Of a stretch of 64,000 bases of DNA, positions 2,905 through 12,840 are shown one piece after another; the first letter of the stretch is position 1, and each line of letters begins with the position of its first letter. The translations under genes were made by a program, and so were the position numbers. The notes beneath the pieces are model-generated. The model was not told the origin of the DNA, made no database searches, and saw only the letters and a list, made by a program, of their open reading frames with translations. The DNA comes from a virus: positions 1 to 64,000 of the IMG/VR virus record IMGVR_UViG_3300020162_002681. One strand, 5' to 3'.

Positions 2905-3325
2905 TTGTCTCGGAGACGAGGAAGTGTATGGTGAAGTAGTTGAGGGCTGGACTCTTGTGAGATTGGTTCGACCTACCAACTACAAATCTCCTGAAGGTTT
3001 CTCTAGTTGCCATCAACACTCTGCAAAATTGCACAACGATGTGTATATGTTTTGGAATGATTGGGGTTTGACACGAAGCAATGACCCAGATTTTATTTTT
3101 AGCTGTGACCCGTTACCTAAAACTAGTCGCTCGAAGAAACAACTGCAACGCTTCCAGCACTATAGAGAACGCTTGACAGGTGATGTAGAAATTGGGTATA
3201 GTTTGATGGCTGCTTGCCTGAAAGCTGGCTACAACCCCAAGAAATTGCGTCTTGCAGAATGGTTAATGGATAGAATGTATCAGCATCTGAAAAACTTGGA
3301 TTGGAAACCTATTAAAGTAAGATGA
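2882..3325 (+). CDS. Hypothetical protein
   Basis: 147 residues from a GTG at 2882; a second GTG at 2891 is also possible. It overlaps the DUF4326-like gene by about 20 bases and the next gene by ATGA at 3322-3325. The protein is soluble, rich in aromatic and basic residues, with a helical C-terminal half. No family is recognised. Confidence 0.55.
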   Translation: MRKVSAINCLGDEEVYGEVVEGWTLVRLVRPTNYKSPEGFSSCHQHSAKLHNDVYMFWNDWGLTRSNDPDFIFSCDPLPKTSRSKKQLQRFQHYRERLTGDVEIGYSLMAACLKAGYNPKKLRLAEWLMDRMYQHLKNLDWKPIKVR

Positions 3326-8894: not shown

Positions 8895-10712
8895 ATGTCT
8901 GCATCGCTTAAACTTTTCGGTGTCGTTTTAGAAAATCGCGCTCCACAATCGATTCGTAAAACCGATTTCATTTTTATTCGGGAATTTGGTATTGTAATTG
9001 CTCCCAACGCCTCTGCCAAAGCCGTAGATATCCGTAGTTGGGCTAAGCAATCCGAACTCACTGGAAACCAACTTAATGGGTCGTTCCACAAGTCTTGGAA
9101 TAAGGTAATGAGCGCTTCAGGCTATAAACTAGCTACGGAACAATTGTTACATTACTTTACTACATACGGATTGGAAGCTCTAGGTTTAGCTCATCCTGAT
9201 TTGGTCTACATTCCAAATGAAGTTCTCAATACCCCTGAACCATTACCTCTCCGTATTATTCGTGGTGTCAGTCGTGATGAGTTAATTTCACGTACTTTCA
9301 AATTACTTTCATCTGGTGCTGCACTCAAGCAAGAAACTATCTCACTAGCGTTCGATTTGTTAGATGAACTTGATTATGTTTTCACAGGCTCGGAAGATAT
9401 TCGTAATCGCGAAGCTAAAGTCTACGCAATTGAGCGCACAGGAATCTTGCCAACTAACCCGATGGACTTATTTCGTTGGTTTGTCTACAAGGCGACAGGC
9501 GAAACTTTACTCATTAAGAATGATGCGCTGATTGCAAAAATCAAAGATTCGGGCTACATACTTCCAAGCCTCTCTTACTCTCAACAAATTGCTCTTGCAA
9601 CGCACTTCAATCGACTCAAACCACTTTGGCTAGCATTCAAGCACAGTGACGCGAACAACCCTGCAATCGTCAACAGCATTAGCAAGATAAGCAAAATCCA
9701 GCACAAGCCTCTCGCGGTTAATCTGTTGAGTAATGTCAGTAAGGTTCGCACAGCAGCAGAATTTCTTGACGTTTTACCTTCTGCCAATATCTTCCAATTG
9801 GTTCGTGCTTATAATCACTTAAAAGTGCGCTTAGCTTCTGATAACGATTCTCAATTGTATTTAGTCCGCAACGGTAAGGGGTTTGCAAAAGAGAAACCTA
9901 CTAAGCGCCCAGTTATTTTTTACGAGACATTAGCTGACTTGTTGATTCAAGAAATTCGCGCTCGATTCACTTACGAGAAAATTTACGTCCCTGACAACGT
10001 GGATTATGCGATTCCTACCAGTGAAAAGCAATTTGTCGGTATGATTCCTATCAACACTGAAATTCGCATCCCTAAAGACGAAAGCTTTGGTCTTGTTGGT
10101 ATTTACTGGGAAGATGGTCAAGAGCGCACTGACCTCGATTTACGTGCAGATTCCATGAGTGATTCTGTAGGTTGGAACTCGTCGTACAGAAATACAAACG
10201 AAGATTTCGAGGGTATCGCCTATTCTGGAGATATGACCTCTGCCCCTAATGGTGCTTCTGAGTGGCTATACCACAACAAGATTATCGACACTTACTCGGT
10301 GAAAATCAACAGCTATAGAGCAGATGAAAATCACTCATTCAAGTTGATTGTTGGGTATGGTGACAACGTTAAGAAAGACTATGTGATTGACCCTAATCGA
10401 ATCATCTTTAAAGCTGATTTGTCGATGGTTCAAGAGGAAATCACTTTAGGTATATTGGCTCCAACTGAAAATGGCTCATCTTTCTTTCTTTCTGGTGCTG
10501 CGACAAGCAATCGTAGTGTCGGGCGCGATAATAAAGTGAGTCAAATTGCACGACAAGCCCTAATCAAGCAGACTAAAAATGTGCTTCGACTTAGTGACTT
10601 GATGGCTTTGAATAACGATTATAGCTATGCTCTTGATGTTGAGGAAGCTAAATACGACCTCGCACCCGCATCACTAACTAAAGATTCGTTCTTGAATCTT
10701 TTCACTCATTAA
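8895..10712 (+). CDS. Large protein of unknown function, helical N-terminal half and beta-rich C-terminal half
   Basis: 605 residues. Residues 1 to about 330 look all-helical and repeat-like. From about 370 the protein turns beta-rich, with RIPKDESFGLVGIYW, TDLDL, YSGDMTSAPNGASEW and VGYGDN. The D-x-D-L plus YSGD pattern reminds me of TerD-like calcium-binding sandwiches, and the helical front recalls TROVE/Ro proteins. There is no vWA MIDAS motif and neither match is firm. The leader with four covarying hairpins makes RNA binding or RNA-based control of this gene a reasonable idea. A strong terminator follows at 10724, so it is probably transcribed alone or last. Confidence 0.75.
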   Translation: MSASLKLFGVVLENRAPQSIRKTDFIFIREFGIVIAPNASAKAVDIRSWAKQSELTGNQLNGSFHKSWNKVMSASGYKLATEQLLHYFTTYGLEALGLAHPDLVYIPNEVLNTPEPLPLRIIRGVSRDELISRTFKLLSSGAALKQETISLAFDLLDELDYVFTGSEDIRNREAKVYAIERTGILPTNPMDLFRWFVYKATGETLLIKNDALIAKIKDSGYILPSLSYSQQIALATHFNRLKPLWLAFKHSDANNPAIVNSISKISKIQHKPLAVNLLSNVSKVRTAAEFLDVLPSANIFQLVRAYNHLKVRLASDNDSQLYLVRNGKGFAKEKPTKRPVIFYETLADLLIQEIRARFTYEKIYVPDNVDYAIPTSEKQFVGMIPINTEIRIPKDESFGLVGIYWEDGQERTDLDLRADSMSDSVGWNSSYRNTNEDFEGIAYSGDMTSAPNGASEWLYHNKIIDTYSVKINSYRADENHSFKLIVGYGDNVKKDYVIDPNRIIFKADLSMVQEEITLGILAPTENGSSFFLSGAATSNRSVGRDNKVSQIARQALIKQTKNVLRLSDLMALNNDYSYALDVEEAKYDLAPASLTKDSFLNLFTH

Positions 10713-11614: not shown

Positions 11615-11900
11615 TACTATCGATAAAATCTCTTCACTCATGATAAAAGAAGAATATGCTTGGAAAGACGCACAGATAATAAAAACTGCTGAATCTACTG
11701 GCATTATGGTTATGGATGAGCTAACTAAGCTTGGTTGGAGTTTTGTACTACAACGAGATGCTAGTACTGGTCAAAACGTGTTGATGTGGGGCAGAGTTGA
11801 TTCTGAGCAGAACTTTATCGAGGAGTCGCGCTTCGAGTCGAAGGTAAAGCAGGAGTTTGAGGCTATTTGTAAAGAGGCTGTGAGGCTACCACTAAGTTAA
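11607..11900 (+). CDS. Hypothetical protein
   Basis: 97 residues, soluble, mixed helix and strand. It overlaps the preceding gene by 8 bases, and its last base is the first of the next ATG (TAATG). No family is recognised. Confidence 0.55.
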   Translation: MNDTIDKISSLMIKEEYAWKDAQIIKTAESTGIMVMDELTKLGWSFVLQRDASTGQNVLMWGRVDSEQNFIEESRFESKVKQEFEAICKEAVRLPLS

Positions 11901-12553
11901 TGGATTTAAGAAATTTTGAAGTTGATTTTGATTCTATAGACTCCCTTAACAGGTTGAGGAATAAGCTAAAAACTAGATTGTGCGAACTAACAGGTAAGGA
12001 AAATAAAAGCAGAAGAGAAACTAAAGCAGAGTACGAAACTAGAAGACGCACTTGTTTTGAAGCATATTTTAGTATTCTAGATACAGACATTACACATCTA
12101 TACAGTGATATTTCTGTGTCACTAGACCCCGAACCTAAATACTATGTCTATGCTCATTTAGATACTAGCAAACCTATTGTAGATGCGAAGAAAGCTAGAA
12201 TAGCTATAACATTTGCAGCCACTTTTGGTATGCAATTTCATCCATTCTATATAGGTAAAGGGGTGGGTGATAGGGCTTACGAGTTATCACGAAACGAAAC
12301 CCATAAAAAAGTTCGAGATAGATGTAAGAAATCTGGTAAAGATATTACTCCAATAATACTAAAAGACTCTCTTAGCGAACTAGATGCTTTAGCTTATGAA
12401 GCAAAACTGATGGATATTTTTGGTTCTATTGCTTGTAATGGCTTGTTAGTCAATATCGATGATGGTCATAGGTCTAGAGAAAGGAAGCAACTTTACAAGA
12501 AACATTTAGAGTGTATAAATAGCATAAATACATACCTACTTAAAGACGTATAG
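11900..12553 (+). CDS. GIY-YIG (LEM-3-like) endonuclease, possibly homing
   Basis: 217 residues. After a charged helical N-terminus of about 80 residues, KYYVYAHLD supplies the GIY-like strand and FYIGKGVGDRAYE the YIG-like strand with the GKG-x-x-x-R catalytic stretch; a conserved-looking Glu follows in ALAYEAKLMDIFG. This is the LEM-3-like GIY-YIG layout found in phage homing and repair nucleases. The gene ends about 30 bases before the tmRNA gene, so it could mobilise or protect that locus, as homing nucleases often sit beside their target genes. Catalysis is inferred from motifs. Confidence 0.7.
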   Translation: MDLRNFEVDFDSIDSLNRLRNKLKTRLCELTGKENKSRRETKAEYETRRRTCFEAYFSILDTDITHLYSDISVSLDPEPKYYVYAHLDTSKPIVDAKKARIAITFAATFGMQFHPFYIGKGVGDRAYELSRNETHKKVRDRCKKSGKDITPIILKDSLSELDALAYEAKLMDIFGSIACNGLLVNIDDGHRSRERKQLYKKHLECINSINTYLLKDV

Positions 12554-12583
12554 TAAATACCAATTTTTGTGTTAATATAAAAA

Positions 12584-12840
12584 AGTCACTGAGATTGCTA
12601 GATAACTAGGCTGGATGGGTAGCATAAATCCAATCCTCCACCAATCTAGGGGGATGCCGCAAGGACGTTTCGACAGGTTAGTGATTCTAGCAACACGCTG
12701 GAGTTTTATGAATGAAAGCTAGGCGACACAAAAACAAATGCCAATAACAACATCGTTAAATTTGCCCGTAAGTCTGCCCTTGTAGCTGTTGCAGTTTAAC
12801 CAACCGAAGACCTCGTATACTTAACGGTTGCGGGGTCTTC
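12584..12840 (+). ncRNA. ssrA: Circularly permuted tmRNA (acceptor piece first, then coding piece)
   Basis: The acceptor 3' strand ATCCTCC plus discriminator A and encoded CCA lies at 12633-12643. Only 5 bases later the 5' strand GGGGGAT (12649-12655) starts and pairs with it, giving G1-C72, G2-C71 and the G3-U70 alanine identity pair. A second helix joins the two pieces: TTGCTAGA (12595-12602) with TCTAGCAA (12686-12693), plus ACTA/TAGT. The tmRNA signature GTTTCGACAGG is at 12667-12677. The tag begins at GCC 12740 and reads ANNNIVKFARKSALVAVAV, stop TAA 12797-12799. Right after it, CAACCG/CGGTTG and GAAGACCTCG/CGGGGTCTTC interleave as an H-type pseudoknot (12801-12840). The T-loop is atypical (11 bases). 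Confidence 0.9.

What the first reader, a model, noticed from the sequence alone, without database searches (positions are those of the whole stretch)
12584..12840. Phage-encoded, circularly permuted tmRNA with a 5-base junction
Seen: the CCA-terminated acceptor strand (12633-12643) precedes the 5' acceptor strand (12649-12655), separated by ATCTA only. The strands pair perfectly and include G3-U70. A second inter-piece helix (TTGCTAGA/TCTAGCAA), the GTTTCGACAGG signature, the tag and a downstream H-type pseudoknot are all present. Known: two-piece permuted tmRNAs exist in alphaproteobacteria and in a Synechococcus/Prochlorococcus lineage, with longer intervening segments as far as I recall. 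Nostoc-type tmRNA is one-piece. Inference: the phage made or acquired a permuted form, and cutting out 5 bases is enough to free the CCA end.
Basis: partly seen in the sequence, partly recalled or inferred. Interest (0 to 1): 0.9.

Follow-up and report, generated by a model that had tools for sequence, protein, structure and literature searches.

The report
Permuted tmRNA in Pseudanabaena phages

Summary
Window 12570-12840 (+) holds a circularly permuted tmRNA gene. Rfam tmRNA_permuted aligns full-length but below cut-off (21.5 of 47 bits); ARAGORN misses it. Seven related phages (Pam2, PA-SR01, five IMG/VR contigs) also carry permuted tmRNAs: T stem and acceptor pair in 84/84 cells, 10/12 pairs covary, and G1-C72 and G3-U70 never change. 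The host genus has one-piece tmRNA (25/26 genomes) and the host encodes SmpB; six phage records searched do not.

Not supported: that the short junction is special. Cellular cyanobacterial permuted tmRNAs have 5-39 nt after the discriminator (8 here), and as few as 4 nt after CCA.

Most likely a working phage tmRNA using host AlaRS, SmpB and RNase P; activity is untested.

The parts
12570..12578 (+). Extended -10-like promoter element TGTTAATAT
   Evidence: TGYTAdwAT aligned at the same distance upstream of P2 in five phages; the sigma-70 consensus scan does not list it; inferred promoter
12595..12613 (+). P2 helix, 5' strand (TTGCTAGA.TA.ACTAG..CTG)
   Evidence: MFE fold; window-Pam2 differences in P2 keep pairing as G-U
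12616..12632 (+). T arm TGGGT-AGCATAA-ATCCA with noncanonical T loop
   Evidence: Sequence, fold, T stem covaries across phages; all other phages have TTCRANN
12633..12643 (+). 3' acceptor strand ATCCTCC, discriminator A, encoded CCA
   Evidence: covariation
12644..12648 (+). Junction ATCTA between CCA and the 5' end of the coding piece
   Evidence: length compared with cellular permuted tmRNAs
12649..12655 (+). 5' acceptor strand GGGGGAT (G1-C72, G2-C71, G3-U70)
12656..12677 (+). D-arm region with GTTTCGACAGG, longer than usual
   Evidence: alignment
12678..12693 (+). P2 helix, 3' strand TTAGTGATTCTAGCAA
   Evidence: Fold
12700..12722 (+). Sequence-conserved pre-tag element GGAGTTTTATGAATGAAAGCTAG
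   Evidence: Nearly identical in five phages
12740..12799 (+). Tag reading frame ANNNIVKFARKSALVAVAV with stop TAA; resume codon GCC
   Evidence: homologous tags in Pam2, PA-SR01, L005, L253
12800..12840 (+). Downstream H-type pseudoknot: AACCG/CGGTT and AAGACCTCG/CGGGGTCTT
   Evidence: strongly conserved in five phages, though stem 1 has a mismatch in L004/L005 and L003, L252, L253 have a simple hairpin instead
11900..12553 (+). Upstream GIY-YIG-like homing endonuclease relative; possibly linked to turnover of the RNA gene, not part of the RNA
   Evidence: Weak Pfam GIY-YIG hit below cut-off; relatives annotated as homing endonuclease in Vibrio and Burkholderia phages; 76-aa remnant 96% identical in Pam2

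Best explanation
A phage-encoded, circularly permuted ssrA gene. A transcript starting near 12585 folds so that the 3' tRNA-like strand (T arm, acceptor, A-CCA) pairs with the following 5' strand. Host tRNA-processing enzymes (RNase P at G12649, a 3' nuclease at the CCA) remove the 5-8 nt link, leaving a two-piece tmRNA held by the acceptor stem and P2. Host AlaRS charges it (G3-U70), host SmpB and EF-Tu bring it to stalled ribosomes, and the tag ANNNIVKFARKSALVAVAV is added. Shown here: gene architecture, conservation with covariation, permuted form in eight phages, SmpB in the host but not in the six phage records searched. Inferred: transcription, cleavage, charging, tagging, and that the altered T loop still works.
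For: Descriptor hit unique to this place; full-length RF04321 alignment; MFE fold is the tRNA-like domain; 84/84 paired cells, 10/12 pairs covarying, G1-C72 and G3-U70 invariant; relatives called permuted tmRNA by ARAGORN or Rfam; homologous in-frame tags; conserved upstream -10-like element; host SmpB present.
Against: T loop AGCATAA/AGCATTA in window and Pam2 lacks the near-invariant TTCRA and the D-loop region is extended; Rfam score below cut-off and no ARAGORN call; no expression data.
Confidence: 0.8

Rival explanations
1. In window and Pam2 the gene is a decaying or repurposed tmRNA: with the canonical T loop lost it is inactive, or it competes with the host tmRNA (bound or charged but not productive).
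For: Noncanonical T loop only in this branch; lowest model scores; tag is the least conserved part between window and Pam2 (52/60); a CDS-less phage tmRNA (DS6A) that inhibits host tmRNA is known (PMC11915505).
Against: Acceptor, discriminator, CCA, P2 pairing and tag frame are all intact in both phages; RNA outside the tag is 97-98% identical, above the flanking coding DNA (94% upstream, 76% downstream).
Confidence: 0.17
2. The transcript is not cut at the junction and works, if at all, as a one-chain permuted RNA.
For: The junction is short (8 nt after the discriminator), leaving little room for processing enzymes; no cleavage data.
Against: Cellular permuted genes have equally short links, and the permuted form is described as being cleaved by tRNA processing enzymes (PMC11915505). 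An uncut CCA could not be charged.
Confidence: 0.03
3. Chance resemblance; no tmRNA.
For: No Rfam gathering-level or ARAGORN call on the window itself.
Against: Covariation and independently recognised homologues; descriptor absent from 60 random windows.
Confidence: 0.01

Closest known systems
Permuted two-piece tmRNA of cyanobacteria (Rfam RF04321 tmRNA_permuted, RF01851 cyano_tmRNA; picocyanobacteria and Gloeobacter-type genomes)
   Same: Gene order, acceptor with G3-U70, short link (4 nt after CCA in L165), tag of ANNIV type
   Different: Noncanonical T loop, longer D-loop region, tag ending -VAVAV, phage-borne; tRNA-like half barely alike in sequence
Phage-encoded two-piece tmRNA (Melnitz and other aquatic phages, PMC9004378)
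   Same: Permuted tmRNA gene in a phage whose host does not appear to be its direct source
   Different: Those are ARAGORN-detectable (Melnitz's groups with alphaproteobacterial genes); this clade is cyanobacterial-type and includes undetected, intron-bearing and tRNA-bearing forms
Intron-form tmRNA (group I intron in the T loop, PMC11915505)
   Same: PA-SR01 and L252 carry a group I-type intron in the T loop, at what I read as the main site (between loop nt 6 and 7), with a U.G pair in P1 and a 3'-terminal G
   Different: There the gene is of standard order; here it is permuted. The window's own gene has no intron.
Standard one-piece tmRNA of Pseudanabaena (RF00023, e.g. L223)
   Same: Tag family (ANNIVSFSRKAAPVAA versus PA-SR01 ..FSRKAAPVAA and L253 VNNIVSFSRKATPVAA); the phage model R1 matches it weakly (25 bits)
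   Different: One-piece order, ~390 nt, several more domains

Membership tests
tmRNA (ssrA) | 7-bp acceptor stem with G3-U70 and 3' A-CCA | tested here: met
   CCA encoded in window and Pam2
tmRNA (ssrA) | T arm with 7-nt TTCRANN loop | tested here: not met
   5-bp T stem present, but loop AGCATAA (Pam2 AGCATTA); the six other relatives have TTCRANN, two of them after removal of the intron
tmRNA (ssrA) | In-frame tag with hydrophobic, Ala-rich C terminus homologous to known tags | tested here: met
   ANNNIVKFARKSALVAVAV*; ends in Val, unlike examined cyanobacterial tags that end in Ala
tmRNA (ssrA) | Score above curated model cut-off | tested here: not met
   21.5 of 47 bits for the window; relative L003 passes at 51.6
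tmRNA (ssrA) | Alanine charging and trans-translation with SmpB | not testable with these tools
   Host SmpB present, none in the phage records searched
Permuted (two-piece) tmRNA | 3' acceptor strand upstream of 5' acceptor strand in the gene | tested here: met
   eight phages
Permuted (two-piece) tmRNA | Intervening sequence removed to give two RNAs | not testable with these tools
   Needs end mapping
Group I intron (relatives PA-SR01 and L252 only) | P1 with U.G at the 5' splice site, core helices P3-P9, 3'-terminal G | tested here: met
   P1, P3, P4, P6a (compensatory change), P7, P9 and terminal G found
Group I intron (relatives PA-SR01 and L252 only) | Match to the Rfam group I intron model | tested here: not met
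   No match up to E 5-10 in PA-SR01; splicing itself not testable here

The most novel reading that the evidence does not exclude
Pseudanabaena phages carry a permuted tmRNA that evolves unlike cellular ones: the mRNA-like half is held constant in sequence while the tRNA-like half turns over (new acceptor, T and D arms, group I intron, inserted tRNA-Trp), driven by homing endonucleases or by escape from tRNA-targeting defence. The Pam2/window branch has reached a restructured elbow (T loop AGCATAA) and a -VAVAV tag, giving ribosome rescue that is less coupled to host proteolysis. The permuted-plus-intron gene is a further tmRNA gene form.
Probability: 0.2. Interest if true: 0.75.

Novelty: new variant of a known kind. 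Interest (0 to 1): 0.5.

Why it matters
It shows a phage clade that keeps a permuted tmRNA although its host genus uses the one-piece form, so the phage gene is not a simple recent copy of the host's. It exposes a class that ARAGORN and Rfam cut-offs miss, and a permuted-plus-group-I-intron form not listed among the forms of 97,179 catalogued tmRNAs (PMC11915505); a 2014 review stated that all phage group I introns then known sat in protein-coding genes (PMC3984707). Pam2 and its host are in culture (PMC9382816), so processing, charging and tag fate can be tested directly.

Tried and rejected
Unusual shortness of the junction: rejected. Host origin of the permuted form: not supported in the host genus; its only over-cut-off permuted hit, G302 contig C11, is a GC-rich alphaproteobacterial-looking sequence and probably contamination. 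Phage SmpB: none in G000-G003, Pam2, PA-SR01. Second tmRNA elsewhere in the phage: none over cut-off. Rfam group I intron match for the PA-SR01 insert: none even at E 10, so it was identified from its core helices and a compensatory change. More window-like T loops in IMG/VR: none with one pattern. Plasmid accessions tried to reach Pseudanabaena genomes: not held; the host was reached instead through CRISPR spacers matching Pam2. The Pseudanabaenaceae MAG G100 was a poor proxy (tmRNA cut by a contig end). Two older two-piece tmRNA papers were not held.

Full report
What is there. The window (first 64 kb of a 146,232-bp virus record) contains at 12570-12840 a complete permuted ssrA layout. In order: a -10-like element (12570-12578), one strand of P2, the T arm, acceptor strand ATCCTCC-A-CCA, ATCTA, acceptor strand GGGGGAT, a D-loop region with GTTTCGACAGG, the other P2 strand, a conserved pre-tag element, a 19-codon tag, and a pseudoknot. 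The MFE fold of 12595-12693 reproduces T arm, acceptor and P2. Rfam scored it full-length but below cut-off, 21.5 of 47 bits, and ARAGORN gave nothing. A likely reason is visible: the T loop is AGCATAA instead of TTCRANN, and the D loop is longer.

Not chance. A structural descriptor hits only this place in the window and nothing in 60 random windows. Homologues settle it. Pam2 (87% DNA identity) and PA-SR01 came from the phage collection. L003, L004 and L005 came from IMG/VR, and L252 and L253 from terminase relatives searched with a model of the downstream half. L003 passes the Rfam cut-off; L003, L005 and L253 are called tmRNA* by ARAGORN. On the seven distinct tRNA-like domains (L252 is identical to PA-SR01 there), all 84 pair cells are standard pairs, 10 of 12 pairs change on both sides, and shuffled and slid controls collapse. 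G1-C72 and G3-U70 never vary; G2-C71 varies only in L253 (U2-A71).

The junction. Measured between discriminator and G1, the link is 8 nt in window and Pam2, 6 in PA-SR01 (read), 7 in L005, 26 in L003, and 78 in L004, where it contains a tRNA-Trp gene. Cellular cyanobacterial permuted genes span 5-39 nt. The Gloeobacter-type gene (L165, on a 4,659,019-bp chromosome; naming it Gloeobacter rests on my memory of that genome's size) has only ACTC after its encoded CCA. Within the phage clade, only window and Pam2 encode CCA at this place.

Host and origin. Among cyanobacteria at large, 68 of 390 genomes exceed the permuted cut-off, mostly small genomes of the picocyanobacterial kind. Pam2's host was located through CRISPR spacers 97-100% identical to Pam2, at the coordinates published for P. 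mucicola Chao 1806 (PMC9382816). In that genus 25 of 26 genomes have the one-piece tmRNA, with tag ANNIVSFSRKAAPVAA or a one-residue variant in those typed. The single over-cut-off permuted hit (G302 C11) looks like contamination. Phage tags follow the host's in several members: VNNIVSFSRKATPVAA (L253), AKNNICQFSRKAAPVAA (PA-SR01). They differ in others (window, Pam2, L005..VAVAV; L252..PVAV, read). Apart from one evident miscall (L048), the cyanobacterial tags typed end in Ala. SmpB is present in the host and absent from the six phage records searched, some of which may be incomplete. The window phage's own host was not identified; Pseudanabaena is inferred from its relatives.

Turnover of the tRNA-like half. 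Downstream of P2 the phage RNAs are conserved in sequence, whereas the tRNA-like half conserves little but structure. In PA-SR01 (L002 2716-2942) and L252 the T loop is split by a 226-227-nt insert with group I features. P1 is GUUCGAU/GUCGAAC with U.G at the splice site; P3, P4, P6a, P7 and P9 are recognisable; a G precedes the 3' exon; and P6a shows a compensatory A-U to G-C change between the two phages. The Rfam intron model does not hit it, so this rests on the helices. Splicing would restore GAGGG-TTCGATT-CCCTC. The tmRNA database lists standard, intron and permuted forms, but none that is both intron-bearing and permuted; its special intron search also used a 500-bp size floor (PMC11915505). 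Directly upstream of the window's RNA lies a GIY-YIG-like gene with annotated homing-endonuclease relatives, of which Pam2 keeps a C-terminal remnant. In T4 the free-standing GIY-YIG enzyme SegB targets a tRNA intergenic region (PMC2988022). Homing-driven replacement of the tRNA-like half is thus an attractive but untested idea.

Mechanism and confidence. Gene identity as a permuted tmRNA: about 0.97. Working two-piece tmRNA using host AlaRS, SmpB, EF-Tu and RNase P: about 0.8. A decayed or inhibitory form in window and Pam2 is the main rival (0.17), because of the T loop. Between window and Pam2 the RNA outside the tag is 97-98% identical, flanking coding DNA 94% upstream and 76% downstream, and the tag 87% and still in frame; P2 changes keep pairing. 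This favours constraint but does not prove activity. The roles of RNase P, AlaRS, EF-Tu and SmpB are taken from the established biology of two-piece tmRNA, not tested here.

Known or new. Phage-encoded two-piece tmRNA is known (PMC9004378). This locus is a new variant of that kind. The most novel material lies in its relatives.

Noticed in passing
L002 2716-2942 (PA-SR01, MT234670.1) and L252 ~1257-1482 (IMGVR_UViG_3300042359_000646): Group I-type intron of 226-227 nt in the T loop of a permuted tmRNA, not annotated in PA-SR01; the permuted-plus-intron combination is not among the tmRNA gene forms listed in PMC11915505.
   Followed up: yes
L004 3978-4051 (IMGVR_UViG_3300008121_000001): A tRNA-Trp(CCA) gene sits inside the intervening segment between the two halves of the permuted tmRNA; PMC11915505 reports one such case, with tRNA-Ala.
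   Followed up: partly
window 11900-12553; L001 ~3006-3240: GIY-YIG-like homing endonuclease gene directly upstream of the tmRNA, and its truncated remnant in Pam2; candidate driver of turnover of the tRNA-like half.
   Followed up: partly
window 12740-12799, L001 3429-3488, L005 286-345, L252 ~1588-1643: Tags end in -VAVAV or -VAV, whereas the typed cyanobacterial tags end in Ala; may alter recognition by host proteases.
   Followed up: partly
L171 266-412 (-) (G062:C1 ~927 kb) and L170 236-401 (-) (G176:C51): Compact permuted tmRNAs in cyanobacterial genomes; G062 has a second, ordinary permuted copy, so the L171 copy (tag ANNIKRTERTLAIAA) may be prophage-borne.
   Followed up: no
L235 1001-3106 (IMGVR_UViG_3300031787_000016): The terminase large subunit match spans 2,106 bases for 561 residues, suggesting an insert of about 420 bases (intron or homing element).
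   Followed up: no
L182, L183 (Pam2 record ON014754.1): Several deposited product names (for example 'botulinum neurotoxin type B', 'neurexin') look like spurious automatic labels on phage structural genes; not examined further.
   Followed up: no
L168 (G302:C11:8739-8952): A Pseudanabaena-genus assembly holds a GC-rich contig with a strong alphaproteobacterial-looking permuted tmRNA; probably contamination.
   Followed up: partly
L255 8675-10183 (window record ~72.6-74.1 kb): Five tRNA genes in the same phage: ARAGORN calls Ser, Gly, Gln and Thr, and Rfam adds one more at 10034-10105.
   Followed up: no
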